A stretch of DNA of 64,000 bases. It comes from Chthoniobacterales bacterium. Its GTDB lineage: Bacteria > Verrucomicrobiota > Verrucomicrobiia > Chthoniobacterales > UBA10450. A program made the translations under genes and the position numbers. The stretch is from contig DATENU010000021.1 of the NCBI GenBank assembly GCA_035274845.1, forward strand, positions 62,001 through 126,000, given 5' to 3'. The notes under the pieces are model-generated. The model was not told the DNA's origin. It worked only from the letters and a program-made list of their open reading frames with translations, and searched no databases. The first letter of the stretch is position 1; each line of letters starts with the position of its first letter. This document shows positions 1,632 through 16,901 of the stretch, one piece after another.

Positions 1632-4586
1632 ATGAAAACGACCACCCGAATTTTTCTCCAGCTGACAATCCTGGCAGCAGCCCTCTGCGCTTTTACCGCA
1701 AGAGCAGGCGAACTGATTTATTCCCAAGCCTCGGATAACCAATCCACCTTTGGTCCGAGCCAATTATGGACGGCGACTAGTGTGAACAGCGAAGTTGCTG
1801 ACGAGTTTAACGTCGTCGCCAACATCGACCGTGTTTCCGCCGGAGGATTTGTCTGGGGTTCGGTAAATTTTCAAGGCGTTTACGTTCGCTTCTATGAATT
1901 TGGCGCGGACGGCAAGCCGGGTGTGCTTCAGGGCGAATATTTCCTCCCGGCAGGGGATCCCAAGGTAACGTTCAATTCTCTCACGGGCGGAATCGACGCA
2001 ACTTTGTCGCCCGCCTTCGCTGCCACCGGCCGCCATTTCCTCTCCGTCCAGCCCATCATCAACTATTGGTATTGGTGGAGCTCGAGCAGCGGCGCCCCAC
2101 GCGGCCAGGCCTTCTATTTTCGGGACAACACCACCGGGGAAGGGTGGCATCACGGCGACAACCTGAACACCAACGTTAATGCGGACCTCGTTTTCAATCT
2201 CTACGGATCGGTCACCAGCGCTGGCGTCATCACCAGTTTGTCCGACACCACTCTGCCTCGCAGTGGTTTTCTGGAGATTTTCGGGAACAACTTCGGCGGT
2301 GACGGGACTGTCTTAGTGGGAGGAATCGCCGCACCCGTGGCGGATTGGAGCAGCACTCGCATTGTGGCCTATGTGCCCGAGAATGCGCCTCTGGCCACGC
2401 TGCCCTTGCAAGTGGTCAACAACTCGGGCGGCAGTAATACCACTCCGCTTACGGTAACGGCGCGTCCAGCCCCCGCGGACCACGTGAACTGGCGCTTCCG
2501 GATGAACGGCCCTTATTCGATGGTGAGGCCCGCCATTGCCGCGGATCGCACCATCTACGCGATTGACGTGTTCGACCACCTTTATGCCCTCACGCCGGAT
2601 GGCGGACTGAAATGGCTCGTGCGAGGCGCGGGAGACAAAGGTGTCGCCGTCGGCGCGGATGGCAGCATTTACGTGGCCTCCGAGAGCTACATCAAGGCGT
2701 TCAATCCCGACGGCTCTTCAAAGTGGACCTACGTGCAAAATCCCCGGTCGCTTACCTGTCTGGGCGTCTCAGTGGGGCCCGATGGCAATATCTACTCGGT
2801 TGGGACGGAAGGTCCGGGAGTGTTCTCCCTCACCCCCGCGGGCACGCTGCGCTGGCAACAACCTGAAGTTTACCGGCGGCCAATCGTTGATTACGGCGAA
2901 ATCGTCTTCGGCCCGAATGGCGCCAATCAACAGCTCTACTTCTATGCGAACACTCATGTTCGCGGTCTGCGCCTCGATGGCACTCCAGTCTTCGAGCTTC
3001 CCGTGTCCGGTCAGCCGGCGATTGCTCCCGATGGCAGTGTCCATTTGCCACTCGGAGCCTATTCGCCCAATGGCAACCTGCTTTGGATCTTCCCGACTCC
3101 GTTTCCCTATAATGTCTTTACGCCGGCCGACATTGGGAGCAACGGAATCCATTACTTCGTGCAAAATTTGAGCAAGCTGTTTGCGCTCAATCCTGATGGC
3201 TCGCAGCACTGGCTCGCGGAGGTGAACGGCTATGTGAACGGGCCAATTGTCGATCCGTTCAATCTGCAGTTGGTGATGGGCAGCGCCGATACCCTCGATC
3301 ATGCCGGCTTTGTTATTTCCGCCAACACTCAGGACGGGCAGGAGAATTGGCGCGTAATTTTGCCTTTGGAAGATCCGGCCGTTTGGAACCCTGGCGTCGG
3401 AATGTTTGGCTTTAATCAATTCCCCAGCACGCGAGCACGATTTACTCAGGATGGCCAGACGGCCTACGTCCATACCGCGACAGCGACGGGCGACAACAAC
3501 ACAAGCAAGTCCTTCCTCTACTCTCTGGCCGTGGGAACCGGCGCTCCGCCGCCGTCCCCGACTCCGAGTGCAAGTCCGACTCCGAGTGCAAGTCCGAGCC
3601 CAAGCGCAAGTCCCAGCCCGAGCGTAAGTCCCAGCCCGAGCGCAAGTCCGAGCCCGAGCGCGAGTCCCAGCCCAAGCGCGAGTCCCAGCCCGAGCGTGAG
3701 TCCCAGCCCGAGCGTGAGTCCCAGCCCAAGCGCGAGTCCGAGCCCGAGTATTTCACCCAGCCCAGGTGCAACCCCGACGCCCTCAGTAAATCCGCCGGCT
3801 CAAGCCATGAACCTTTCCACCCGCACCCGGGTCCAGACCGGTGACAATGTAGGCATCGGCGGCATTATCATCACGGGAAGCGCTCCAAAACACGTGCTTA
3901 TTCGCGCGGTTGGCCCGTCGCTGGCCAGTTTCGGCGTTCAGAACGTCCTGGCCGATCCGATCCTCGAACTGCATGGGCCCGGCGGCTTCACTACGATCAC
4001 GAACAACAATTGGCGAGAAACGCAGGCGTCCGAGATTCAGGCCACCGGGCTTTTACCGGCTGATGAGCGGGAGGCCGCGATTGTCGCGACCCTGGCGCCC
4101 GGCGCCTACACCGCCGTTGTCAGAGGCGCTGCTAACACCGCGGGCGTCGGCTTGATTGAAGTTTACGATCTCAATCACGGCGTTGATTCCAAGCTTGCGA
4201 ACCTAAGCACCCGGGCCGCCGTGGGCACAGGTGACGACATCGTTATCGCCGGGTTCATGCTCGGCAGTAATAGCGCCAATAGCAGGATCGTGATCCGCGG
4301 CATTGGTCCAAGCCTGGCCGCGACGGGAGTGACCAATGCCCTGCCGGATCCGGTTCTCGAACTGCGCGATGGCAACGGCTTGCTTCTCACCGCCAACAAT
4401 GACTGGGCCGATACCCCCGCGGCAGCCGCCGAACTGACGGCCATGGGCCTCGCCCCAACAAATCATCTCGAATCCGCCATCGTCGCGACCTTGCCGCCGG
4501 GGAGCTATACCGCGCTCCTCTCGGGGACGAACAACGCTGCCGGAGTTGGAGTTGTGGAAGTTTACGAGAGCGGCAGAGCACCGTGA
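1632..4586 (+). CDS. Secreted IPT/TIG and beta-propeller protein with Ser-Pro linker
   Basis: A large exported protein of 984 residues. The ATG at 1632 is preferred over one at 1518 because it places the signal peptide (MKTTTRIF, then a hydrophobic stretch ending TARA) at the N terminus. After the signal come a beta-rich domain, an IPT/TIG-type domain (GVITSLSDTTLPRSG, about residues 200-275), and a PQQ-like propeller with repeats such as LTPDGGLKW and FNPDGSSKW. A Ser-Pro repeat linker encoded near 3550-3790 leads to two tandem copies of about 120 residues, each beginning NLSTR and containing IRAVGPSLA or IRGIGPSLA, and ending VGLIEVYD or VGVVEVYE. I associate this terminal domain with Verrucomicrobiota surface proteins. 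The role is probably at the cell surface; the ligand is unknown. Confidence 0.8.
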   Translation: MKTTTRIFLQLTILAAALCAFTARAGELIYSQASDNQSTFGPSQLWTATSVNSEVADEFNVVANIDRVSAGGFVWGSVNFQGVYVRFYEFGADGKPGVLQGEYFLPAGDPKVTFNSLTGGIDATLSPAFAATGRHFLSVQPIINYWYWWSSSSGAPRGQAFYFRDNTTGEGWHHGDNLNTNVNADLVFNLYGSVTSAGVITSLSDTTLPRSGFLEIFGNNFGGDGTVLVGGIAAPVADWSSTRIVAYVPENAPLATLPLQVVNNSGGSNTTPLTVTARPAPADHVNWRFRMNGPYSMVRPAIAADRTIYAIDVFDHLYALTPDGGLKWLVRGAGDKGVAVGADGSIYVASESYIKAFNPDGSSKWTYVQNPRSLTCLGVSVGPDGNIYSVGTEGPGVFSLTPAGTLRWQQPEVYRRPIVDYGEIVFGPNGANQQLYFYANTHVRGLRLDGTPVFELPVSGQPAIAPDGSVHLPLGAYSPNGNLLWIFPTPFPYNVFTPADIGSNGIHYFVQNLSKLFALNPDGSQHWLAEVNGYVNGPIVDPFNLQLVMGSADTLDHAGFVISANTQDGQENWRVILPLEDPAVWNPGVGMFGFNQFPSTRARFTQDGQTAYVHTATATGDNNTSKSFLYSLAVGTGAPPPSPTPSASPTPSASPSPSASPSPSVSPSPSASPSPSASPSPSASPSPSVSPSPSVSPSPSASPSPSISPSPGATPTPSVNPPAQAMNLSTRTRVQTGDNVGIGGIIITGSAPKHVLIRAVGPSLASFGVQNVLADPILELHGPGGFTTITNNNWRETQASEIQATGLLPADEREAAIVATLAPGAYTAVVRGAANTAGVGLIEVYDLNHGVDSKLANLSTRAAVGTGDDIVIAGFMLGSNSANSRIVIRGIGPSLAATGVTNALPDPVLELRDGNGLLLTANNDWADTPAAAAELTAMGLAPTNHLESAIVATLPPGSYTALLSGTNNAAGVGVVEVYESGRAP
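3550..3790 (+). repeat. Ser-Pro coding tandem repeat
   Basis: Short in-frame tandem units of the type agtcccagcccgagc encode SASPSP/SVSPSP repeats. They form an extended linker between the propeller and the C-terminal duplicated domains of the secreted protein. Such a repeat can change length by slippage. Confidence 0.85.
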
Positions 4587-5049
4587 GGTTCATCTTGGGC
4601 GCTTGGGCGCGGAGCTGACCAACACAAATCAATTGTAGCCGCAGCTTGAACCCTTGTCACAGTCGCTTCCGTCGCCCCTAAACGGGGCTCGTTCCGATTA
4701 TCCCTAACCCCGGAGTTCCGCTTCGCTTCACTCCGGGCTCCAATCCGGCGCGCCTTCCGGCGCTAGTGCTTCCCATTTCCGGTCTTTCCGGCGTCAGGCC
4801 GGTTCTCTCTCCGAGTCCGAAGGGGCGTCGGAATAAAGCCCGGAGCCGCCAACCCCGGGGTCGGAGATCTTTGCCGTCCAAGCAGCGACCTGATCGGCAA
4901 TTTGAAGGGTGAAGTCTTCAAGGCCGGGCCGCGCTTCCCTAATCTCAGACGTTATTTGCCTTAGGGAGAACACCCTAGCCGATGTTCCCCCCTTTCCGAA
5001 TTGCAGTTGATGGGTTAATCGAAAGACCAGCTGACTGCCTGAGAATTCC
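4587..5049. other. Intergenic region with hairpin, no recognised gene
   Basis: No convincing gene was found. A hairpin with arms CCCGGAGT (4709-4716) and ACTCCGGG (4730-4737) may be a terminator-like or repetitive element. The right end carries the TAGGG-N6-CCCTA box described separately. Confidence 0.4.
4960..4978. promoter_or_regulatory. Candidate operator, TAGGG-N6-CCCTA palindrome
   Basis: TAGGG (4962-4966) and CCCTA (4973-4977) are separated by six bases, 72 bases before the sensor kinase at 5050. The same arms and spacing occur at 7204-7219 ahead of a NarL-type regulator gene. An inverted repeat of this kind would suit a dimeric LuxR/NarL-type regulator; this is inference. Confidence 0.4.
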
Positions 5050-6540
5050 ATGTTACCACCGCGCGAAGAAGACTTTCGACCACTCTCGAGCCAGATCGAA
5101 CAGGCGATTTGGAAGGCCGAAGAGCGCTACCGCGCGTTGGTGGAGAACTTTCCAGGGGGCAACATTACCCTGTTCGACAGAGAACTCCGTATCCTCTTTG
5201 TCGGGGGAGACGACATGAAGAACGCCGGCCCGCCAGACATGTTCGTAGGCAAGTTCTTGCGAGAAGTGGCGCCGGTTGAGACGTGCGCGATCGTCGAACC
5301 GAACCTCGGCCTCGCGTTCCAGGGACGGAAAGTAACCTACGAAACACCCTACAAAGGAGGAACGAGATACCGCGCCACCGCTACGCCGATCTTTTCGAAT
5401 GACGGGGACGTCAGTGAAGTGCTGGTGGTGGCGGCGAACATCACCGAACAGGAACAGACGCGGGCTGCCTTACATGAGAGCGAAGCGCGCTTTCGTTTGC
5501 TCGCCGAAGTCACGAACGATGCCATCTGGGACTGGGATCTGGTCAAGAACGAGGTTTGGCGGAACGACGGTTTCGAAACCCTCTTTGGCTATAGCCGCGA
5601 CGAAATCGAGAACTCCATCGCTGATTGGTCCGACCGGATTCACCCTGCCGAACGTGGCCGCGTGTTTACGGGAATTCGGCGGGTCATCGATGAAGGCGGA
5701 ACAACCTGGTCGGACGAATACCGGTTCCTTTGCAAGAATGGAAACTACGCCTATGTCCTGGATCGCGGACAGGTGATTCGTAACGGTGCCGGCAAAGCCG
5801 TGCGAATGGTCGGCGGCATGCGCGATTTGACCGAGCGCAAGCGCGCCGAAGAAGCGGCGAAGGTTTTCCCGGCCGAACTATTGAGAGCCCAGGATGAAGA
5901 GCGCCGGCGAATCGCCCGTGAATTACACGATTCGACCGCGCAGGAACTGGCCGTTGTCGCCCTGAATCTCGGTCGCCTCGAAGAATGGATGGAGGGCCAT
6001 GATCCGTGGGCGGAGAATCTTCTCGCCGACAGTCTCGCCGTCCTGACCCAGGGAAATCGAGATTTGCGCACCCTGGCTCATCTTTTGCATCCACCGATGC
6101 TCGAGGAGCTGGGTTTGATCGGGGCGCTCCGAGATTATGTCGAAGGTTTTTCAGCGCGCAGCGACATCCAGGTGGAATTGGATGCGCCCGAAGACTTCGA
6201 TCGTTGCTCAGACGAAATTGAGACGGCGCTGTTTCGCGTCGTCCAGGAGAGCCTCGCGAACGTGCATCGTCATTCCGGCAGCGACGTTGCCTTTGTAAAA
6301 TTGAAGCGCGATGATGAAATCATTGAGCTGACTATTGCTGATCGCGGTCAAGGTTTACCGGATGGCCTGTTCACCGGCACGGCCGACGCAGCGCGCGTCG
6401 GCGTTGGTATTTCCGGAATGCGCCAACGAATCGTGCAACTGGCGGGCCGTCTCGAAATCACTTCCCACCAAAGCGGCACTACTGTCGTGGCCGTTCTTCC
6501 GTTTTGCCCGAAACGTTCGCGGACCGGCAGTTTCTTTTGA
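5050..6540 (+). CDS. PAS-PAS sensor histidine kinase, NarX/HisKA_3 type
   Basis: A soluble sensor kinase of 496 residues with no membrane segment. Two PAS/PAC units (about 20-140 and 145-270) end in VVAANITEQEQ and GGMRDLTERKR. The HisKA_3 dimerisation motif ERRRIARELHD follows, with phospho-acceptor H293. The HATPase_c domain has the N-box VVQESLANVHRH and glycine motifs DRGQGLP and VGVGISGMRQR. This architecture signals to NarL/LuxR response regulators. The next gene starts two bases after the stop and encodes one, so they are probably cognate partners. The two PAS domains presumably sense a cytoplasmic or redox cue that the sequence does not reveal. Confidence 0.9.
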   Translation: MLPPREEDFRPLSSQIEQAIWKAEERYRALVENFPGGNITLFDRELRILFVGGDDMKNAGPPDMFVGKFLREVAPVETCAIVEPNLGLAFQGRKVTYETPYKGGTRYRATATPIFSNDGDVSEVLVVAANITEQEQTRAALHESEARFRLLAEVTNDAIWDWDLVKNEVWRNDGFETLFGYSRDEIENSIADWSDRIHPAERGRVFTGIRRVIDEGGTTWSDEYRFLCKNGNYAYVLDRGQVIRNGAGKAVRMVGGMRDLTERKRAEEAAKVFPAELLRAQDEERRRIARELHDSTAQELAVVALNLGRLEEWMEGHDPWAENLLADSLAVLTQGNRDLRTLAHLLHPPMLEELGLIGALRDYVEGFSARSDIQVELDAPEDFDRCSDEIETALFRVVQESLANVHRHSGSDVAFVKLKRDDEIIELTIADRGQGLPDGLFTGTADAARVGVGISGMRQRIVQLAGRLEITSHQSGTTVVAVLPFCPKRSRTGSFF

Positions 6541-6542
6541 GA

Positions 6543-7190
6543 ATGAAAAAGCTTCGAATCCTGATCGCCGACGATCACCCGCTGGTGCGCCACGGCCTGC
6601 GTTCGGTGCTCGAATCGCAGCCGGGTTGGACGGTTTGCGGCGAAGCCGAAGAAGGCCGGAGCGCGGTGAAGCTCGGTCTCGAATTGAAACCGGACGTTTT
6701 CTTGATGGACGTCACCATGCCGGAATTGAACGGCCTGGACGCGACGCGGCAACTTTGCCGCGAACGCCCTGACGCTGCGATCTTGATCCTTACCATGCAC
6801 GAATCCGACCAACTTCGCGCCGATCTGCTGCGGGCGGGGGCAAGGGGGTGCCTGCTCAAGAGTGACAGTCCGCGGCAATTACTCGCCGCGGTGGAAGCGG
6901 TGGCGAGCGGCAAGCAATACTTCATCCCCAATGTCACGGGCGGGGCCCGTCCTTCCGACCGCACAAACAACGCGGGCGCCGGAAGGCTGCCGGCGCGGTT
7001 GAGCGGGCGCGAGCGCGAGATTGTCCAGCTCCTGGCAGAAGGGCGGACGAACAAGGAAATCGCCACGCTCCTCGGCATCGCCTACAAAACCGTGGACGCC
7101 CACCGGACCAACATCATGAAGCGCCTGAACATGCATTCAGTTGCGGAACTGGTCCGTTACGCGATTCGCGAACGCATCATCGAGCCATAG
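6543..7190 (+). CDS. NarL/LuxR-family response regulator
   Basis: A 215-residue response regulator. The receiver domain starts at MKKLRILIADDH, with acidic pair D10/D11, phospho-acceptor D56 in LMDVTMPELNG and a lysine in LLKSD. The C-terminal LuxR helix-turn-helix (LSGREREIVQLLAEG to KTVDAHRTNIMKRL) is about residues 147-205. The start at 6543 sits two bases after the kinase stop, which indicates one transcript and a probable cognate pair; an in-frame start at 6504 would overlap the kinase and add no domain. Targets are unknown. Confidence 0.92.
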   Translation: MKKLRILIADDHPLVRHGLRSVLESQPGWTVCGEAEEGRSAVKLGLELKPDVFLMDVTMPELNGLDATRQLCRERPDAAILILTMHESDQLRADLLRAGARGCLLKSDSPRQLLAAVEAVASGKQYFIPNVTGGARPSDRTNNAGAGRLPARLSGREREIVQLLAEGRTNKEIATLLGIAYKTVDAHRTNIMKRLNMHSVAELVRYAIRERIIEP

Positions 7191-7202
7191 CAGGGCTGCG
7201 AT

Positions 7203-7220
7203 CTAGGGTGGGTTCCCTAG
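7203..7220. promoter_or_regulatory. Candidate operator, CTAGGG-N6-CCCTAG palindrome
   Basis: A perfect palindrome with arms CTAGGG (7203-7208) and CCCTAG (7215-7220) around a six-base spacer, 102 bases before the response regulator at 7322. Its core matches the box at 4960-4978 in arms and spacing. It may be a binding site for one of the NarL-type regulators of the cluster (inference). Confidence 0.45.
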
Positions 7221-7321
7221 GGTAAATTGGTCTCCGAAATAGGGAGGACGGGAGCGAATTCCGGCGCGATAATTCATTGTCCCCGTTGAAGTAAACAATC
7301 CCCCCGGGTTGTTAATGCGTT

Positions 7322-7987
7322 ATGGCTCAAAAGAAATTGCGCATCCTCATTGCTGACGATTATCAGATTGCCCGCGAGGGCATCCGGGCCTTGATCGAAA
7401 GGCAAGCCCGCTGGGAAGTCTGCGGTTCGGTTGGGAATGGGTTCGAAGCTGTGGAGAAGGCCAGCGAACTCAAGCCCGACATCGTTATTCTCGATATGAC
7501 AATGCCGGAGCTGAACGGGCTCGATGCCGCCGTCCGGATCAAGCGTCGCCTTCCGAACACGGAGATCCTCATGTTCACCGCCCACGAAAGCGATAACCTG
7601 ATCCGGCAGGCGTTCGACGCCGGGATTAAGAGTTACGTTCTGAAAAGCGATGGCCATCATTTCCTCGTTGAGGCGATAGAATCGCTTTCCCGCCACAAGC
7701 CGTACCTCACCGCGAAGGTGTCCGAAATCTTGTCTTCGAACGTTATCAACCGGGCCGAAAGCAGGCGCGGCGATGCCGAGCCGGGCCAGCGCCGCCTGAC
7801 CGCTCGTGAGCGGCAGGTCGTGCAGCTAATTGCCGAAGGCAAAAGCAACAAGGAAATCGGTAACGCGCTCGGTATCAGTCTTCGCACAGTGGAAAACCAC
7901 CGTGCCAACATCCGTCGCAAGCTGAAACTCGACTCGGTGGCGGGCTTGGTTCGTTACGCGATTCGCAACAAAATGATCGAACCGTAA
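7322..7987 (+). CDS. NarL/LuxR-family response regulator
   Basis: A 221-residue regulator with receiver (D12/D13, phospho-acceptor D58 in VILDMTMPELNG, lysine in VLKSD) and C-terminal LuxR helix-turn-helix (LTARERQVVQLIAEG to RTVENHRANIRRKL). It is a close paralogue of the regulator at 16233: both share FTAHESD-LIRQAFDAGIKS and the ending VRYAIRNK-IEP. It stands alone after a 131-base gap with its own palindromic box, so it is probably a separate transcript whose kinase may be any of those in the island. Confidence 0.92.
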   Translation: MAQKKLRILIADDYQIAREGIRALIERQARWEVCGSVGNGFEAVEKASELKPDIVILDMTMPELNGLDAAVRIKRRLPNTEILMFTAHESDNLIRQAFDAGIKSYVLKSDGHHFLVEAIESLSRHKPYLTAKVSEILSSNVINRAESRRGDAEPGQRRLTARERQVVQLIAEGKSNKEIGNALGISLRTVENHRANIRRKLKLDSVAGLVRYAIRNKMIEP

Positions 7988-8113
7988 AGGGCGCAAACGC
8001 CCCGTTTCGCGACTCCGATTAAGGGCGTGACTGGGCAATTTACGCCCGACTAGGTAGAACCCGCCATCTCCGCGCGCCTTCCGGGCACGTCTTACGCTAT
8101 TCCTGAAATTGTC

Positions 8114-8518
8114 ATGCTTGAAAAAGGAGCCAGGGAGAATCTTTATCGGATCATGACGGATGTCCGCGCGGGGACCGGCCAGCGATCCGTTTCCGGCGGC
8201 GACTTTGGAATCGTCACTATCTGGGTGCGGGCCGCTTCGGTTTCGGCCGCGATCACGAAAGCAGGCTTTGTCCTCAACGATCGCCGATACAGTTCCATCG
8301 GCACGCTCCATTGTTACGTCGAAGAACTCGCCAACGATCCGCTGGCTTTCGTCAGCGAAGCGGAGCGGGCCAGGGAACGATCCGCGGATCAGTTGCTCGC
8401 CGGTTACGATAAGCTCAAAGAATCCGCGCTGGCCCGGGCTGACGGTCTCCATGAGGTGTGGCTGGGCGCGACTGCTGACGGCGCGCTTCACAAAACGAAC
8501 CGTGCCGCGGCTGCGTAG
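8114..8518 (+). CDS. Hypothetical protein
   Basis: A 134-residue protein of unknown family. It is mixed alpha/beta, with no signal peptide or membrane segment and a helical, charged C-terminal half. The plus strand is preferred over the long antisense frame because its composition is protein-like and agrees with the strand of its neighbours. ATG at 8114 follows a weak purine run; a second ATG at 8153 is possible. Its place among two-component genes suggests an accessory signalling role, without direct evidence. Confidence 0.55.
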   Translation: MLEKGARENLYRIMTDVRAGTGQRSVSGGDFGIVTIWVRAASVSAAITKAGFVLNDRRYSSIGTLHCYVEELANDPLAFVSEAERARERSADQLLAGYDKLKESALARADGLHEVWLGATADGALHKTNRAAAA

Positions 8519-8644
8519 CCCCTAAAATTCGGCGACCTTTCCACGTCACCTGCGCGCTGGTGGTCGCGGATTGCGGGAACTGCGCGGAACGCAGGCCTAA
8601 CGATTTGATGGCAAACCGGCGCGAAGGGCAGATATTGCAGCACC

Positions 8645-9499
8645 ATGCAAACCCCCAATGGCGCGGAACGCGAGACCGGGCTGCCAGCGGTAGGCCGGGT
8701 GCCGTGGGGATCACACTTCTGTATCTTTTACGAAACGAAGCAGGACCTCCTCGATATTCTGGTGCCGTATTTCAAGACCGGACTGGAGGCGAACGAGTGC
8801 TGCCTTTGGATTGTCACACCGTACGAATTCCTCTCGGAGGCGGACGCAATAGCGGCTCTGCGGCAGAAGTTGCCCAACATTGACGATTATCTGCGAGGCA
8901 GACAGCTCACCGTGCGGCGGCATTCGGACTGGTTTGCCGGAAACGGGATCTTCGATACTTCGAAAGCGGTCGCGCGTTTCCGGAGAAAGTCGGCTGAGGC
9001 GGAAAGGCGCGGCCTGAGTGGGTTGCGGGTGAACGGCAGCTCGGCCTGGATAAGTTTTCAGCTTGGTCCGGCTAAGTTTTGCAAGTTCGAACGCGACCTA
9101 GATGCGTGGTTGGCTAACGGGCGGATAATCGTCGCCTGCACGTTCCCTCTGCATTTGATCGGAGCGGGAGAAATCCTCGACGCGGCGCGAACCCACCAGT
9201 TTGCCGTAACGGTTCGCAATGGCGTATGGAAGCGGGTTGAGATCGCAGACGTCAAAGACGCGCGGGCCGCGAAACGAAATGCCAGTCGTTCCCTGCACAA
9301 GTTGAGTCCGCGCCAGCGCGAAACCCTGCAACGCATTGCCGAAGGTCAGAACACAAAAGAGATCGCCGGGCTGCTGGGGATTAGTGCGAAAACGGTGGAA
9401 GCGCATCGCTTGCAATTGATGCGCCGGCTGAAGATCCACGATGTTCCTGGACTGGTCCGGCTCGCAATTCGCACCGGATTGGTTTCGGCAGAGACGTAG
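8645..9499 (+). CDS. MEDS-domain LuxR-type transcriptional regulator
   Basis: A 284-residue regulator. The N-terminal 200 residues resemble the MEDS sensory domain (the DcmR-type methanogen/methylotroph sensor), with the opening motif GSHFCIFYE (H24) and later LWIVTPYEFL and FAGNGIFD. The C-terminal LuxR helix-turn-helix (LSPRQRETLQRIAEG to KTVEAHRLQLMRRL, about 222-280) binds DNA. There is no receiver domain, so it is not itself a phosphorylation target. MEDS domains are thought to sense small hydrocarbon-like or redox signals. It lies in the signalling island, probably on its own promoter. Confidence 0.75.
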   Translation: MQTPNGAERETGLPAVGRVPWGSHFCIFYETKQDLLDILVPYFKTGLEANECCLWIVTPYEFLSEADAIAALRQKLPNIDDYLRGRQLTVRRHSDWFAGNGIFDTSKAVARFRRKSAEAERRGLSGLRVNGSSAWISFQLGPAKFCKFERDLDAWLANGRIIVACTFPLHLIGAGEILDAARTHQFAVTVRNGVWKRVEIADVKDARAAKRNASRSLHKLSPRQRETLQRIAEGQNTKEIAGLLGISAKTVEAHRLQLMRRLKIHDVPGLVRLAIRTGLVSAET

Positions 9500-9702
9500 A
9501 CAGGCTCGGTCTACGACCGACACGAGCGCCGGCAGTTTTGTCCCCGCCTCTAAGGAAATCCCCAATGGCAGGGCGAGGGAAGGCGCGGAGGTTGACCCAG
9601 AATGAAAACGCTGCGGCCTTTTTCAAAATGGCGACATGTCGACGCGAGGCTGCGTCACTCATCGTCTGTAGAGGTCCGTAAGCAAAGTGGAATAGGATTG
9701 TC

Positions 9703-10371
9703 GTGGTAGCCGAATTGAAAACCCGTCTCGGTAACGCAATTAAGAGAGAAAGAGCGACCCTGGGAATTTCCCAGGAAGAGCTCGCCGCGCGCGCGGGGTT
9801 GCATCGTACCTATGTCTCGGACGTGGAGCGCGGGGCGCGCAATCCGTCCCTCGAGAGCGTGCAAAAGCTGGCAGAGGCCCTCGAGGTTTCGTTGCCGGTC
9901 TTGTTCGAGCGGAGCGCCGGCCGGCGAGACTCAAGCGTCGAGATCCTGCTGGTGGAAGACAACCCTCATGACGTGCGGCTCACGATGCACGCCTTCAAAA
10001 AAGCGCGGCTGACCAATCCGATCCACGTGGTAGCGGACGGGGAAGAAGCGCTGGAGTTTCTTTTCGCCACCGGCCGTTACGCAAGCCGCAAGGACGTTCC
10101 GCTTCCTGAAGTGATGTTGCTTGATTTGAATCTTCCGAAAAAAAGCGGGCTCGAAGTGTTGCGCCAGATCAAGGCCGATCCTTGGACGCAAAATATTTCG
10201 GTCGTTGTTCTGACGGTTTCGAACCAGTCCCGCGACGTCAGTGAGTGCCGCCGTCTGGGCGCGACCCACTACATTGTGAAGCCGGTCGAGTTTCAAAATT
10301 TCAGCGAAATCACGCCCCGGTTAAACCTGGGGTGGTCATTGATCAAGCCGAGGGAGCAAAGGGCGGCGTAA
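9703..10371 (+). CDS. XRE helix-turn-helix fused to Rcp1-type receiver domain
   Basis: A 222-residue protein in an unusual order. Residues 7-62 form a Cro/C1 (XRE) helix-turn-helix (LGISQEELAARAGLHRTYVSDVE). Residues 78-210 form a receiver with E85/D86, phospho-acceptor D141 in MLLDLNLPKKSG, a threonine in VVVLTVS and a lysine in YIVKPVEF. The receiver carries the Rcp1-type signature GEEALEFLFATGRY found in regulators of phytochrome-like kinases, which normally have no output domain. The start is GTG at 9703. It overlaps the phytochrome-type kinase gene that follows, so phosphorylation by that kinase would plausibly control DNA binding (inference). Confidence 0.88.
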   Translation: MVAELKTRLGNAIKRERATLGISQEELAARAGLHRTYVSDVERGARNPSLESVQKLAEALEVSLPVLFERSAGRRDSSVEILLVEDNPHDVRLTMHAFKKARLTNPIHVVADGEEALEFLFATGRYASRKDVPLPEVMLLDLNLPKKSGLEVLRQIKADPWTQNISVVVLTVSNQSRDVSECRRLGATHYIVKPVEFQNFSEITPRLNLGWSLIKPREQRAA

Positions 10372-13121
10372 CTCAAACGAAAAAATCCCCGATCAAAACC
10401 CCCGCCAGCGCGGTCGCGACGAGAACGGCAGCAGACCGTCCGCCGCCCTCGCAAATTTTTGCCGTCAAGGAGCGCATCCATGCGGGAGAAGCGACCGCGC
10501 GCCTGGCAGCGATCGTGGAATGCTCCGAGGACGCCATCATTCGCAAAGACCTGGATGGGACCGTCCAAAGCTGGAACGCAGGCGCGGAAAAGATTTTTGG
10601 TTATAGCGCCGCGGAAATGGTTGGCCAGCCGGCCAGGCAACTCATTCCCGCCGATCGTCTCGAGGAGGAAGAGCGGATCCTGTCGAAAATCGCGAAGGGT
10701 GAAACGGCGGAGCATTTTGAGACCATCCGCATCCGCAAGGACGGGACCCATCTGAATGTCTCCATCGTGGTCTCACCCATCAAGGACGCTACCGGGCGCG
10801 TTATCGGCGCCTCAAAAATCGCGCGGGATATCACCGAACAAAAACGAATCGAGCAACAGCTTCGCGCCTCCCTCCGGGAAATCGGCGATTTGAAGGCCGC
10901 GCTCGACGAGCACGCCATCGTGGCGATCACCGACGCGCAGGGACGGATCACTTCCGTAAACGACAAGTTTTGCGAGATCTCGAAGTATTCCCGCGAAGAG
11001 CTGCTCGGGCAGGACCATCGCATCATCAACTCGGGCTATCATCCAACCGAATTCATTCGCGACCTTTGGACGACGATTGCGCACGGCAAGGTCTGGCACG
11101 GCGAAATCAAAAACCGGGCGAAAGACAGTTCCTTCTACTGGGTCGACACGACGATTGTGCCGTTCCTGAACGAGAACGGGAAGCCGCGCCAGTATGTAGC
11201 GATTCGGGCCGATATCACCCAGCGCAAGGAGATCGAAGAACAACTGCGCGCCTCGCTCCGCGAGCTGAATGATTTCAAAGCCGCGCTGGACGAGCACGCC
11301 ATCGTGGCGATGACCGATCCGCAGGGCCGGATCACCTACGTAAACGACAAGTTTTGCGCGATCTCGAAGTATTCGCGCGAAGAATTGCTCGGCCAGGATC
11401 ACCGCATTATTAATTCCGGTTATCATCCGACGGAATTCATTCGCGATCTCTGGACCACGATAACGCACGGCAAGGTCTGGCACGGCGAGATCAAGAACCG
11501 GGCGAAGGACGGTTCCTATTACTGGGTCGACACGACGATTGTCCCGTTCCTCAACGACAAGGGGAAACCGCGGCAGTACGTCGCGATTCGGGCCGACATC
11601 ACCGAGCGCAAACAAATTGAGGAGCAGCTCCGAGCGTCGTTGCGCGAAGTAGGGGACTTAAAGACCGCCCTCGACGAGCACGCCATCGTGGCCATGACCG
11701 ACCCGCAGGGCCGGATCACCTACGTGAACGATAAGTTCTGCCAAATCTCGAAGTATTCCCGCCAAGAGTTGCTGGGACAAGATCATCGTATCATCAATTC
11801 CGGTTATCATCCTACGGAGTTCATTCGCGACCTTTGGACTACGATCACGCATGGCAAGGTCTGGCATGGCGAAATCAAGAACCGGGCGAAGGATGGCTCC
11901 TTTTACTGGGTGGATACGACGATCGTGCCGTTCCTCAACGAAAAGGGAAAGCCGCGGCAGTACGTCGCGATCCGCGCTGATATTACCGCGCGGAAGCGGG
12001 ATGAGGAATCGCTCCGGCTCCAGGCGAGCCTGCTCGACCAAAGCTATGACGCGATTCTTTTGTGGGAGCTAAACGGCCCGATCCGCTTTTGGAACCGCGG
12101 TGCGGCGGTGCTCTACAGTTACACGAAGGAAGAGGCGGTCGGCCGCTTGAGTCACGAGTTGCTCGGGACGAGTCCAGCGCTGCTTCAGCAAGCCCGGGCC
12201 GCTCTGGCGCGCGAGGGAAAGTGGGAAGGCGAACTGAACCATACTGCGAGGGACGGCCGGCAGTTGACGATCGAATCGCGGATGGTGGTGGTGCTGGAGA
12301 ACGATCAGCAGCTCGTTCTCGAAGCCAATCGCGACATCACGGAGCGGAAGCGGGCCGAGGCAGCGGTGCGCGAACTCAATACCGAACTGGAACAGCGGGT
12401 GATCCAACGCACGGCGGAATTGGAGAACGCGAACAAGGAGCTGGAAGCGTTCTCTTATTCGGTTTCGCACGATCTGCGCGCGCCGCTGCGAGCAGTCGAT
12501 GGTTTTTCCCAGGCGGTGCTCGAAGATTTCGGGACGCAGTTGCCCGAGGAAGGCCGGCATTATCTGAAGACGATCAGGGAAGGCGCGCAAAAAATGGGCG
12601 CGCTCATCGATGATCTCCTGACGTTTTCACGGCTGAGTCGATTGCCGCTCAACAAGCGGAGCGTGAACACCAACCGGATCGTGCGCGAAACGCTTGAAGA
12701 ATTGGGGTTCCCGGAAGAAGGCCGGCAAATCGAGATGCGCATCGCGGAGCTGCCGGCGTCGCTCGGCGATTCGGCGTTGCTCAAACAGCTTTGGCTCAAT
12801 CTTCTTTCGAACGCCTTGAAATACACGCGGCGGCGCGAGTCCACTGTCATCGAGGTCGGTTGCCGGCGCGAAGATGGAAAGGGCGAGAACGTCTTTTTCG
12901 TTCGCGATAACGGGACCGGCTTCGACATGCGCTATGCCGGCAAACTGTTCGGCGTCTTCCAGCGCTTGCATCGCGTCGAGGAATTTGAAGGCACGGGCGT
13001 CGGCCTGGCTATCGTGCAGCGAATCGTCCACCGCCATGGCGGACGCATCTGGGCCGAAGCCGCTCTCGACCAGGGCGCGACTTTTTATTTCACCCTCGAA
13101 GGAGAGCCACACCATGAATGA
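10332..13121 (+). CDS. Multi-PAS histidine kinase, phytochrome-type HisKA
   Basis: A soluble kinase of about 929 residues. A first PAS/PAC (ending ARDITEQKR) is followed by three almost identical PAS/PAC units of 128 residues each ([20 protein letters not shown] to YVAIRADIT), a fifth PAS, a coiled coil ([12 protein letters not shown]), HisKA ([10 protein letters not shown]713) and HATPase_c ([31 protein letters not shown]). The kinase core is of the phytochrome class, but no GAF or PHY chromophore domain is present. The GTG at 10332 overlaps the previous gene by 40 bases; a GTG at 10245 would overlap by 127 and is less likely. The next gene starts inside its stop codon. Probable partners are the flanking Rcp1-type receivers. 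Confidence 0.88.
10851..12002 (+). repeat. Three tandem 384-bp PAS-coding repeats
   Basis: Three direct copies of exactly 384 bases (10851-11234, 11235-11618, 11619-12002) code three 128-residue PAS/PAC units. They differ by only a few residues, for example [20 protein letters not shown] and [10 protein letters not shown]. The near identity implies recent duplication or ongoing gene conversion. Confidence 0.92.
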
Positions 13122-13563
13122 AAAACCGGTAGAAATTTTACTCGTCGAAGATAACCCGAACGACCTGGAGCTGACCCGGCGGGCCTTGCGCAAGGCGAAT
13201 CTAAGCAACAATATCCAAATCACGCGCGACGGAGCTGAGGCGCTCGAGTTCCTCTTTTGCGAAGGGTCCTATGCGAACCGGAAGCTCGAGGATGGCCCGA
13301 AGGTCATCCTGCTCGATCTGAAGCTGCCGAAAGTGGACGGGCTCGAAGTGCTGAAGCAGGTCAAGACCGATCCCCGGACGAAGTCGATTCCGGTGGTGGT
13401 TCTCACTTCGTCGAAAGAACAGCGCGACGTCGTCGAAAGTTACCAGCTTGGCGTTAACAGCTACATCGTTAAGCCGGTAAACTTCGAAGGATTTGCCACC
13501 GCCGTGCAGGAGATCGGGATGTATTGGCTGCTCCTGAACCAGCCGCCGAAGATGGAGGGATAG
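13114..13563 (+). CDS. Rcp1-type single-domain response regulator
   Basis: A 149-residue stand-alone receiver: [11 protein letters not shown] with acidic pair E12/D13, phospho-acceptor D68 in [12 protein letters not shown], a threonine in VVVLTSS and a lysine in YIVKPVNF. It has the Rcp1 hallmark [13 protein letters not shown] and no output domain, so it relays phosphate or acts by protein contact. ATG at 13114, preceded by AAGGAGAG, overlaps the kinase stop at 13119-13121, and the hybrid kinase starts immediately after its own stop. It is clearly part of the kinase operon and a probable direct partner of it. Confidence 0.93.
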
Positions 13564-16236
13564 ATGGCGAATCCATTGCGGATTCTCATTCTCGAAGATC
13601 AACCGAGTGACGCGGAGCTGCTCCTCCGCGAATTGCGCCGCGCCGGTTACGAGCCGCAGTGGAAGCGCGTTTTTGCGGAGAAGGATTTCCTCGAAGAACT
13701 CGAAGCGGATTACCACATCATTCTCTCGGACTATTCGATGCCGCAGTTCGACGGTATCCGCGCGCTCCGCTTGTTGAACGAGCGCGGCTCGCAGGTCCCT
13801 TTCATTCTCGTTTCCGGCACGATGGGCGAAGAGACCGCGGTGGCGGCGATGAAAGAAGGGGCCACCGATTATCTTTTGAAAGACAGGCTGGCCCGACTTG
13901 GGCCGGCGGTCGGTCTGGCGCTCGAGCAAAGCAGGCTTCGGCAAGAGCGCGCGCGCGCCGAGGAAGCATTGCGCGAAAGCGAGGAGCGTTTTCGCCAGAT
14001 TGCCGAGAACATCGAGGAAGTATTCTGGATTACGAATCCGGCGAAGAACCAGATCCTGTACGTGAGTCCGGGCTGCGAATTGATCTGGGGACGGAAATGC
14101 GAGGATGTTTACGCGGCGCCCGAAAGCTGGCTGGAGGCGATTCATCCAGAAGATCGTGAGCGGATTGCGCAGGCCGCTTCAACCAAGCAGGTCGATGGCA
14201 CCTACGATGAGGAATACCGGATCGTGCGTCCAGACGGTTCGATTCGCTGCATTCACGACCGCGCTTTTCCCGTCCGCGATGGGGCGGGCGAGATTTACCG
14301 GGTTGTCGGCGTGGCTCGGGACGTAACTGAGCGCAGGCGTTCCGAAGAAGCGATTCGTGCCAGCGAGCACCGCTTTTCGTTGTTCATGGATAATTTGCCT
14401 GGTTTCGCCTGGATCAAGGACGCGGACGGCCGCTACGTCTATGCGAACAAGACAGTGCGGAAGATGGTGATGAACGGGCGGGATTGGTTCGGCAAGACAG
14501 CCGCGCAAATGTGGCCGGCCGAGTTTGCTGCCTCCTACGAAGCGAATGATCGGCAGGTCCTCGAGACCAAGGCCCCAAAAGAAGTCGTCGAACCAACGCT
14601 CGTGGGTGAGGAAGAGCGGACCGCGCTCAACAGCAAGTTCCCGATCCTGAATGAGCGAGGCGAAGTCGCGTTCGTCTGCGGGATCGGGATCGATATTACC
14701 GAGCGCCTTCAGGCTGAAGAACGTATTCGCGAGCAGGCCGATATCATCAACCGCGCTCACGACGCCATCATCATGCGCGATTTTGAAACGGAACGGATAA
14801 CCTTTTGGAATGCGGGGGCAGAAGATCTCTACGGTTGGACCGCCGACGAAGCGGTTGGGCGGCTGATTAGCCAGTTAGTTTTCGCCGATCCGATGCAAGT
14901 CGAGCCGATCAAGAAATCGCTGCTGGCAACGGGAGAATTTCGCGGCCAAATCCGCCAGGTTACCAAGAACAAGCACGAAGTGATCGTCGAAGGCCGTTCA
15001 ACTCTGATTCGAAATGCCGCCGGTGAGCCGCGTTCCGTTCTCATCATCAATACGGATGTTACCGAGCACAGGAAACTCGAGACCCAGCTGCTCCGGGCTC
15101 AGCGGCTCGAGAGTATTGGTACCCTTGCCAGCGGGGTCGCGCACGACCTGAATAATATTCTGGCGCCTATCCTGATGGGCTCGGCCGTCCTTCGTCGCGC
15201 CGAGATGGAGCCGGACGATGAAGCAATCCTTTCCACTATCGAAACGTGCGCGCAGCGCGGAGCCGATATCGTCCGCCAGGTCCTCACCTTCGCGCGCGGC
15301 GCCGAGGGCGACCGGTTACCCCTGGCCGCGGCGCCTCTCATCAAAGACGTGGCGAAAATCGCCGAGGAAACGTTCCCGAAAAAAATTTCGGTGCGGACCC
15401 GCATTACGGAGCCGCTTTGGACGGTGATCGGCGATCCGACTCAACTGCATCAGGTGCTGCTCAATCTTTCCGTGAACTCGCGTGACGCAATGCCAGTAGG
15501 CGGCACGCTCACACTGCTCGCGGAAAATTTTCCGGTCGACCAGCATTACGCGAGCATGACTCCGGGCGCGACGCCTGGTCCGCATGTCTGTTTTCAAGTA
15601 ACGGATACGGGCATGGGGATTCCGCCGCAGAACCTCGACAAGATTTTCGATCCGTTCTTTACCACGAAAGAACTTGGTCATGGAACTGGGTTGGGGCTTT
15701 CGAGCGTGCTCGGGATCGTGAAAGGCCACGGCGGATTCATGAGCGTTTACAGCGAGGTGGCTCGCGGTACGACCTTCAAGGTTTTTCTGCCGGCAAAGAC
15801 AGGCGAACTGGACGCGCCGGAACATCCCGACGCGGAATTTCCGCTGGCCGCCGGCGAGTTGATTCTCCTGGTGGACGATGAAAAACCGATCCTGCAAATC
15901 GCTCAGGCCCTGCTGGAGGGACATGGTTACCAGGTTCTTACGGCGGGCGACGCCGCCGAGGCGCTCGCGATTTTCGCTACCCGCCGGGACGAGATAAAAC
16001 TGGTGCTAACCGATCTGTCGATGCCCGTGATGGATGGCGTCGCGCTTATTCGAACCCTGCGAAAAATTAAGCCGGACGTGCGGCTGATTGCTTCGACCGG
16101 GCGTGGTGGCCAGGAGCAGCACTCAGAGGAACTGAAGGAGTTGAACGTCCACGCCTGCCTGACCAAACCATACAACAGAACCAAACTGCTGAAGACGCTT
16201 CACGAGGCGCTTCACGCCCAACCTGACAACTCATGA
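13564..16236 (+). CDS. Hybrid sensor kinase: receiver-PAS-PAS-PAS-HisKA-HATPase-receiver
   Basis: An 890-residue soluble hybrid kinase. The N-terminal receiver (RILILEDQPSDAE, phospho-acceptor D56 in LSDYSMPQFDG, lysine in YLLKDRL) is followed by three PAS/PAC units (about 135-260, 265-380, 385-500), HisKA (SGVAHDLNNILAP, H527), HATPase_c (LLNLSVNSRDAMP, DTGMGIP, GTGLGLSSVLGIV) and a C-terminal receiver (LILLVDDEKP, LTDLSMPVMDG, CLTKPYN). An input-side receiver lets another kinase, probably the one at 10332, control its activity. It begins directly after the free receiver gene and its stop overlaps the next regulator start by four bases, so the five genes 9703-16901 form one operon. Confidence 0.92.
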   Translation: MANPLRILILEDQPSDAELLLRELRRAGYEPQWKRVFAEKDFLEELEADYHIILSDYSMPQFDGIRALRLLNERGSQVPFILVSGTMGEETAVAAMKEGATDYLLKDRLARLGPAVGLALEQSRLRQERARAEEALRESEERFRQIAENIEEVFWITNPAKNQILYVSPGCELIWGRKCEDVYAAPESWLEAIHPEDRERIAQAASTKQVDGTYDEEYRIVRPDGSIRCIHDRAFPVRDGAGEIYRVVGVARDVTERRRSEEAIRASEHRFSLFMDNLPGFAWIKDADGRYVYANKTVRKMVMNGRDWFGKTAAQMWPAEFAASYEANDRQVLETKAPKEVVEPTLVGEEERTALNSKFPILNERGEVAFVCGIGIDITERLQAEERIREQADIINRAHDAIIMRDFETERITFWNAGAEDLYGWTADEAVGRLISQLVFADPMQVEPIKKSLLATGEFRGQIRQVTKNKHEVIVEGRSTLIRNAAGEPRSVLIINTDVTEHRKLETQLLRAQRLESIGTLASGVAHDLNNILAPILMGSAVLRRAEMEPDDEAILSTIETCAQRGADIVRQVLTFARGAEGDRLPLAAAPLIKDVAKIAEETFPKKISVRTRITEPLWTVIGDPTQLHQVLLNLSVNSRDAMPVGGTLTLLAENFPVDQHYASMTPGATPGPHVCFQVTDTGMGIPPQNLDKIFDPFFTTKELGHGTGLGLSSVLGIVKGHGGFMSVYSEVARGTTFKVFLPAKTGELDAPEHPDAEFPLAAGELILLVDDEKPILQIAQALLEGHGYQVLTAGDAAEALAIFATRRDEIKLVLTDLSMPVMDGVALIRTLRKIKPDVRLIASTGRGGQEQHSEELKELNVHACLTKPYNRTKLLKTLHEALHAQPDNS

Positions 16237-16901
16237 CAATTCCGACATCATCCCTGCGCATCCTGATTGCGGACGACCACGACGTCATGCGACAAGGCAC
16301 TCAAGCCGTGATCCAAAGACAGCCGGGCTGGGAAGTCTGCGGGCTGGCCACGAACGGCCGGGAAGCGGTCGCGCGCGCGATCGAGCTCAAGCCTGACATC
16401 GTCATCCTCGACATGACCATGCCGCACCTGAATGGGCTCGATGCGGCGATCCAGATCAAGCGGCAAGTTCCTGAAACTGAAATCGTCATGTTCACCGCCC
16501 ACGAAAGCGATGACTTGATCCGGCAGGCATTCGACGCCGGGATCAAGAGTTTCGTCGCGAAAACCGAAGCCCATCATTTCCTCGTCGAGGCGGTCCAATC
16601 GCTGGCGCGGCATAAACCGTATTTCACCGCGCGAGTGTCCGAAATCCTGTTCTCGAACATTATCAATCGCGCCGAAGGCAGGCGCGACGATAATGAGCCC
16701 GGCCAGCGTCTGACCGCTCGCGAGCGCGAGGTCGTGCAGCTCATTGCCGAAGGCAAAAGCAATAAGGAAGTCGCCGACGCGCTCAGCATCAGTGTCCGCA
16801 CCGCCGAAACCCACCGCGCCAATCTCCTGCGCAAACTCAATCTCGCCTCGGTCGCCGATCTCGTTCGTTATGCGATCCGCAACAAGTTGATTGAGCCGTA
16901 G
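16233..16901 (+). CDS. NarL/LuxR-family response regulator
   Basis: A 222-residue regulator with receiver (D14/D15, phospho-acceptor D60 in VILDMTMPHLNG, lysine in VAKTEAHH) and LuxR helix-turn-helix (LTAREREVVQLIAEG to RTAETHRANLLRKL). It overlaps the hybrid kinase gene through ATGA, so it is the likely final DNA-binding output of the 9703-16901 operon. It closely resembles the regulator at 7322, which points to duplication within the island. Confidence 0.93.
   Translation: MTIPTSSLRILIADDHDVMRQGTQAVIQRQPGWEVCGLATNGREAVARAIELKPDIVILDMTMPHLNGLDAAIQIKRQVPETEIVMFTAHESDDLIRQAFDAGIKSFVAKTEAHHFLVEAVQSLARHKPYFTARVSEILFSNIINRAEGRRDDNEPGQRLTAREREVVQLIAEGKSNKEVADALSISVRTAETHRANLLRKLNLASVADLVRYAIRNKLIEP

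What the first reader, a model, noticed from the sequence alone, without database searches (positions are those of the whole stretch)
4960..7220. Shared TAGGG-N6-CCCTA boxes ahead of signalling genes
The same five-base arms with the same six-base spacer occur at 4962-4977 (before the kinase at 5050) and at 7204-7219 (before the regulator at 7322). A weaker form, TAGGTAGAACCC, lies at 8051-8062 and another, TAAGGAAATCCCC, near 9551. A cluster-specific operator, perhaps for a NarL-type regulator, would explain this.
Basis: partly seen in the sequence, partly recalled or inferred. Interest (0 to 1): 0.5.

Follow-up and report, generated by a model that had tools for sequence, protein, structure and literature searches.

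The report
Conserved operator flanking a two-component pair
Two short mirror-image DNA boxes beside a sensor-kinase/regulator gene pair in a Verrucomicrobiota genome are two copies of one longer conserved control element, probably the landing site of the regulator made by that very gene pair.

Summary
The two boxes are real: the only exact TAGGG-N6-CCCTA copies in the 4.54-Mb genome; about 0.006 are expected in the window. They are the core of a longer element: a dyad, consensus TAGGGTnAATnnCCTA, and a block like RAATAGGGA 33 nt on. The 7204 copy lies 13 nt after the stop of regulator 6543. Orthologous kinase-regulator pairs have it in three congeners and in three genomes of another class (regulator 58-59% identical), aligned without gaps. 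A matrix trained on the four congeneric sites ranks the 4962 copy second in the window (32 bits; next 11), on the MINUS strand, facing away from kinase 5050. The 9551 box is a different operator, seen 26-73 nt after 9 of 10 LuxR-type genes with one recognition helix (MEDS or REC sensor), against 1 of 33 other LuxR-type genes and 0 of 157 other ORFs. The 8051 box has no support. Best reading: a NarL/FixJ-type operator bound by regulator 6543. Binding was not tested.

The parts
4934..4979 (-). second copy of the composite element, inverted, facing away from kinase 5050: core TAGGG-N6-CCCTA at 4962-4977, far block GATTAGGGA at 4944-4936
   Evidence: cmsearch 14.8 bits, E 0.0023 in the window, model built without this site; matrix trained on four congeneric sites: 32.1 bits, second best in the window, next 11.2; 23-mer core match at 0 mismatches. 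It did not reach E 0.1 in the whole-genome search with the same model
5050..6540 (+). PAS-HisKA_3 histidine kinase
   Evidence: Pfam; homologs beside the 6543 orthologs in the congeners and 44-53% identical kinases beside the distant element copies
6543..7190 (+). NarL/FixJ-type response regulator (REC + GerE), proposed binder of the composite element
   Evidence: Pfam; orthologs 82, 72, 70% and 58-59%, each followed by the element
7202..7252 (+). composite operator/promoter element: core TAGGG-N6-CCCTA at 7204-7219, far block AAATAGGGA at 7237-7245, 13 nt after the stop of 6543
   Evidence: seven-site ungapped alignment; cmsearch 40.4 bits, E 1.7e-11, though this site is in the model
7322..7987 (+). 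second NarL-type response regulator, the presumed target gene here
   Evidence: Pfam; a NarL-type regulator also follows in G003 and G004, but another gene in G006, G482, G565 and G347
8645..9499 (+). MEDS-LuxR regulator, proposed binder of the 9549 operator
   Evidence: Pfam MEDS + GerE; recognition helix shared with REC-LuxR genes followed by the same site
9549..9569 (+). related but different operator TCTAAGG-N5-CCYAATNGC, 50 nt after the stop of 8645, ahead of the XRE-REC gene
   Evidence: conserved in the same place in G005, G007 and G017, with tandem copies ahead of the same gene in G001; predicted and found after 4 further genes
9703..10371 (+). XRE-HTH + REC protein, presumed target of the 9549 operator
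   Evidence: Pfam HTH_3 + Response_reg; at E 1e-40 found in 4 other genomes of 83 searched

Best explanation
The boxes are the dyad core of a composite cis element bound as DNA by the response regulator encoded at 6543 (NarL/FixJ type), when phosphorylated by kinase 5050. At 7204 the element sits in the promoter region of the next gene (here regulator 7322). Its dyad would take the place of a -35 box, and the block 33 nt further on would be either the -10 region or a third half-site. The inverted copy at 4962 most likely gives autoregulation of the 5050-6543 operon through the symmetric core, or drives a leftward transcript. Shown: position, conservation, fixed spacing, link to the regulator's orthologs, presence of both copies. 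Inferred: who binds, sign of regulation, start sites, phosphorylation.
For: Only 2 exact copies genome-wide, both flanking this gene pair. The element follows 6543 and its three close orthologs (82, 72, 70%) found in 83 family genomes. Same element, same 33-nt offset, no gaps, in 3 genomes of another class whose regulator is 58-59% and kinase 44-53% identical. Matrix from the four congeneric sites: 0 of 1000 first-order resamples reach G482, G565 or the 4962 region, 8 of 1000 reach G347. Model R1 over 387 genomes of the phylum: 4 hits with E under 1e-6, then nothing below E 0.02; these 4 are all members of the model's own alignment, so this shows rarity, not independent recovery. The operators of related regulators also lie next to their own genes (9/10 and 4/4 against 1/33 other LuxR-type genes and 0/157 other ORFs; Fisher p 1.4e-9 against the other LuxR-type genes). 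Relatives of 6543 with solved structures include VraR, NarL and FixJ; its HTH alone is nearest to EsrB and SsrB, also NarL/FixJ-type (the family assignment of these two is recalled). The G004 core TAAGGCAATTCCCTTA matches the FixJ site TAAGTAATTTCCCTTA at 13 of 16 bases (passage of PMC4999443); the two window cores match it at only 8 of 16.
Against: No binding or expression data. The 4962 copy faces away from the kinase, and I found no credible leftward gene or RNA there. A second copy of the whole composite was seen only in the own genome; G004 has a second 23-mer core elsewhere, next to an unrelated gene and, by eye, without the far block. The next homolog of 6543 in rank, G023 at 52%, has no such element behind it by eye. 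The downstream gene differs between lineages, so a common target function is not seen. No sigma-70 consensus promoter was found at the element. The 6543 class was defined after its sites were known.
Confidence: 0.7

Rival explanations
1. A real operator, but bound mainly by another regulator of the cluster (7322, 16233 or an unlinked one), 6543 being only a neighbour.
For: 7322 and 16233 have similar HTH domains, and 7322 is the gene behind the element.
Against: The gene behind the element changes between lineages (G006, G482, G565, G347), whereas a 6543 ortholog precedes all seven aligned copies. 33 other LuxR-type genes, 7322 and 16233 among them, have 1 site behind them.
Confidence: 0.15
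2. An RNA element (hairpin, attenuator or terminator) in the transcript of regulator 6543.
For: The dyad lies 13-25 nt after the stop codon in all seven aligned copies; the arms could form a short stem.
Against: Folding energies are ordinary in 6 of 7 sites folded; only G017 is low, z -4.1. No Rfam match at the gathering threshold in window 4500-10500. In the 9549 class (TAAGG against CCYAA) one position of the would-be stem is A opposite A, and a second pairs only where Y is T. The 4962 copy is not behind a regulator gene and is inverted.
Confidence: 0.08
3. Chance similarity picked out by eye.
For: The bare pattern is short and was chosen after inspection; two-mismatch counts are ordinary.
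Against: Composite with fixed offset, conserved beyond the class, and an untrained second copy in the window.
Confidence: 0.02
4. Terminal inverted repeats of a mobile unit carrying the kinase-regulator pair, because the two copies face outward.
For: In this genome the copies are inverted and flank exactly the two genes.
Against: In the six other genomes the composite was seen on one side only, just behind the regulator; the two genes between the copies are a kinase and a regulator, no transposase.
Confidence: 0.02

Closest known systems
FixJ box (fixK promoter of Sinorhizobium meliloti, 16-bp TAAGTAATTTCCCTTA; passages of PMC4999443)
   Same: 16-bp imperfect dyad with a 6-base centre, recognised by a REC-GerE regulator paired with a sensor kinase; the G004 core matches at 13 of 16 bases
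   Different: The window cores match at only 8 of 16 bases; there is a second block at a fixed 33-nt offset; the phylum differs; binding not tested
RcsAB box (recalled consensus TAAGAATATTCCTA; box named in passages of PMC5829831, without the letters)
   Same: Dyad with TAAG/CCTA-type arms bound by a FixJ/NarL-family regulator near promoters
   Different: No RcsA-like partner looked for; spacing and far block differ; the letters come from memory
NarL 7-2-7 heptamer site (recalled: TACYNMT)
   Same: Inverted heptamers with a 2-bp centre would fit the 16-bp length
   Different: Third base of the arm is G or A, not C; not the NarL consensus

Membership tests
NarL/FixJ-family response regulator (protein 6543) | N-terminal receiver and C-terminal GerE/LuxR HTH | tested here: met
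   Response_reg 1e-26, GerE 1.7e-19; VraR, NarL and FixJ among the PDB matches
NarL/FixJ-type operator | Inverted repeat of about 16 bp in an intergenic promoter region | tested here: met
   that the region is a promoter is inferred
NarL/FixJ-type operator | Conserved at orthologous places together with its regulator | tested here: met
   Behind 7 of 7 regulators examined with 58% identity or more to 6543, itself included; not behind G023 at 52% (by eye)
NarL/FixJ-type operator | Sequence-specific binding by the regulator | not testable with these tools
   needs gel shift or footprint
FixJ box | 16-bp TAAGTAATTTCCCTTA-like dyad | tested here: inconclusive
   G004 core 13 of 16 bases, both window cores 8 of 16 (against the passage)
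NarL 7-2-7 site | TACYNMT heptamers (recalled) | tested here: not met
   Arms read TAGGGAG, TAGGGTG, TAGGGAA
Cis-acting RNA element | Conserved, stable secondary structure or known family | tested here: not met
   6 of 7 sites fold no better than shuffles, G017 does; no Rfam match

The most novel reading that the evidence does not exclude
In Verrucomicrobiota, many LuxR/NarL-type regulator genes carry their own operator just behind their stop codon, so that the regulator's specificity can be read from the next promoter even when the sensor domain is swapped (MEDS for REC). The 5050-6543 pair is an old self-contained unit with a rigid composite operator (dyad plus block at +33) kept across classes, and in this genome it faces outward on both sides, perhaps driving an unseen leftward RNA.
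Probability: 0.4. Interest if true: 0.55.

Novelty: new member of a known kind. Interest (0 to 1): 0.45.

Why it matters
As far as I know (recalled), few regulators of Verrucomicrobiota have been characterised. A regulator-operator pairing readable from sequence alone, with a recognition helix and its site conserved together, gives direct bench tests and a way to propose operators for other LuxR-type regulators of the phylum. My six literature searches, judged from their listings, showed no bacterial report of these motifs; the only listed paper holding the string TAGGGN6CCCTA concerns ribosomal gene regulation in yeasts (PMC2834713, search listing and start of abstract only).

Tried and rejected
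Exact-pattern regulon: rejected. The bare TAGGG-N6-CCCTA is rare and scattered in relatives.

Genome-wide motif TARGG-N5-CCYAATNGC over 210 genomes: 47 matches, and 47 for the reversed control by my count of the printed columns, so the short motif alone is not enriched. Eight of the 47 are at the regulator loci already known (G000, G005 contig 17, G007, G017, G026, G086 twice, G094). Of the 30 for which a locus was given, 7 were not inside an ORF of over 150 aa, and of these only G026 and G007 are regulator loci.

RNA structure: ordinary energies in 6 of 7 sites, no Rfam match.

Leftward gene or RNA behind the 4962 copy: no convincing ORF; fold z -1.5; one terminator-like hairpin at 4859-4839, such hits being as frequent in shuffles.

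8051 string: the gene behind it (8114) has one distant homolog (44%) in 83 genomes. I did not read that locus, so there was no footprint to test.

Other regulators across the phylum: one search gave 30 loci; I left out G017 and the window and read 28 (two of them overlap and may show the same gene). HTH identity 53-66%. Two had the relaxed site within 200 nt behind the gene and none the strict one, so the rule does not extend to every relative. The three distant copies of the composite have another inner spacing, were missed by that pattern, were seen by eye and then tested with a matrix.

Sites ahead of other kinases paired with the 9549 class: none seen ahead of those of G017 and G001; in G005 one relaxed match lies about 117 nt ahead of a kinase, inside an upstream ORF.

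Rows dropped before a count: one search counted 47 of 48 LuxR-type ORFs (one had under 100 nt behind it). One search counted both strands of palindromes, so its 14 intergenic matches are about 10 places by my reading; one of its 2 coding matches is the 4962 site itself inside an 85-aa ORF that I take as spurious.

Full report
What is there. The window lies in a 4.54-Mb genome of 24 contigs. Its nearest named relative is a congener, Spartobacteria bacterium palsa_1379 (record PMSN01000014.1, which fits G007 contig 3 by length and match position), so the organism belongs to the Verrucomicrobiota. The region 5050-16901 is a run of signalling genes: PAS-HisKA_3 kinase 5050, NarL-type regulators 6543 and 7322, a small protein without a Pfam match (8114), MEDS-LuxR 8645, XRE-REC 9703, two large PAS kinases and regulator 16233. 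The two TAGGG-N6-CCCTA boxes lie in the gaps before 5050 and between 6543 and 7322.

Chance. A first-order model expects 0.0056 exact copies in the window and 0.39 in the genome; 2 are seen, both here. The pattern was chosen after inspection, so independent evidence was sought.

Footprint within the genus. 6543 has three close orthologs in 83 family genomes: G006 82%, G003 72%, G004 70%. In each, the gap behind the regulator holds the dyad: CTAGGGTTATTCCCCTAG in G006, TAGGGTAAATGCCGTA in G003, CTAAGGCAATTCCCTTAG in G004. A second block starts 33 nt after the first T of the dyad in all four: AAATAGGGA in the window, G006 and G003, AAAGAGGGA in G004. The next homolog in rank, G023 at 52%, has no such element behind it by eye.

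Footprint beyond the class. A search with the HTH of a related regulator over 387 genomes of the phylum brought in three genomes of another class (G482, G565, G347; all one genus) with a regulator 58-59% and a kinase 44-53% identical to 6543 and 5050. I noticed the element by eye behind those regulators. The seven sites align without gaps over 54 columns with 13 invariant columns. A matrix trained on the four congeneric sites alone finds G482 and G565 (0 of 1000 resamples as good) and, more weakly, G347 (8 of 1000), each at the expected position. Model R1, built from the seven sites, gives four strong hits (E under 1e-6) in 387 genomes: G000, G347, G482, G565, all members of its own alignment; the next is E 0.02. 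That search used stricter filters that lose weak matches and did not report the 4962 copy. Within those limits the element is private to this pair and not a large regulon.

The 4962 copy. It was not used in training, yet is the second-best place in the window for the matrix (32.1 bits; the training site 7203 has 56.1; next 11.2) and for R1 (E 0.0023 in 64 kb). It lies on the minus strand with its far block at 4944-4936. The kinase-regulator pair of this genome is therefore flanked by two outward-facing copies. I found no leftward gene. The simplest reading is that the symmetric core also serves the kinase promoter; a leftward RNA is open.

The other boxes. The string at 9551 belongs to another operator: TARGG-N5-CCYAATNGC, in the same place ahead of the XRE-REC gene in G005, G007 and G017; in G005 and G007, and more weakly in G017, a second copy lies 22 bp upstream. 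G001 has tandem copies, also 22 bp apart, further from its regulator but still ahead of the XRE-REC gene (the 22-bp spacing is my count on the printed sequence). The gene before it is MEDS-LuxR in G000 and, by resemblance (Pfam was run on the window's proteins only), in G026, G086 and G094, but REC-LuxR in G001, G005, G007 and G017, with nearly the same recognition helix. Asking for that helix in 213 genomes of the order gave 12 loci in 8 genomes; 4 genes not seen before (two in G094, one in G086, one in G026) all had the site, and 2 genes with another C-terminus (G005, G007) had none. Over the loci then in hand, the site within 150 nt follows 9 of 10 genes of this class (G001 is the miss) and 4 of 4 of the 6543 class, against 1 of 33 other LuxR-type genes and 0 of 157 other ORFs of 200 aa or more (Fisher p 1.4e-9 against the other LuxR-type genes). 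Shuffled versions of the 13 positive stretches would give 0.38 relaxed and 0.015 strict sites. The 6543 class was defined after its sites were known, which weakens that part of the table, and in more distant HTH relatives the site is mostly absent (2 of 28). By itself the motif is not enriched genome-wide: 47 matches and, by my count, 47 for the reversed control in 210 genomes. For the 8051 string nothing was found.

How it may work. LuxR/NarL-type regulators bind such dyads as dimers (established for the family). With the far block as -10 region the dyad would cover the -35 place, as at activator-dependent promoters; with the far block as a third half-site it would help cooperative binding. 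The data do not decide; no sigma-70 consensus promoter was found there. The G004 core resembles the FixJ site read in PMC4999443 (passages), 13 of 16 bases; the window cores fit it less well, 8 of 16 each.

Verdict. The kind is known (operator of a NarL/FixJ-type regulator); this operator and its pairing with 6543 appear to be new as far as my searches went.

Noticed in passing
window 9654-9672: A second conserved element GTCACTCATCGTCTGTRG lies ahead of the XRE-REC gene in G000, G005, G007 and G017 (a variant in G001), with an extra copy behind that gene in G017; it also follows the 9549-type operator in G094 and G026, and a variant is ahead of the XRE-REC gene in the named record L106. It looks like an operator for the XRE domain.
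   Followed up: partly
L029, L272, L273 (downstream of the regulator gene): A third class of LuxR-type regulators (KTVEKHR) is followed by GTAGGG-N5-CCCCA in 3 of the 8 such genes looked at.
   Followed up: no
L237 (G086 contig 180), 1501-1553: Two exact TAGGG-N6-CCCTA dyads 37 bp apart in a gap upstream of a transporter-like ORF, in a genome that also has the MEDS-LuxR operators.
   Followed up: no
L047 (G004 contig 272), 1501-1523: Another 0-mismatch copy of the 23-mer core TARGGNNNNNNCCYTARGGNAAA, next to an unrelated leftward gene and, by eye, without the far block.
   Followed up: no
window 4700-4868: Several imperfect inverted and direct repeats rich in CCGGAG in the gap before kinase 5050.
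   Followed up: no
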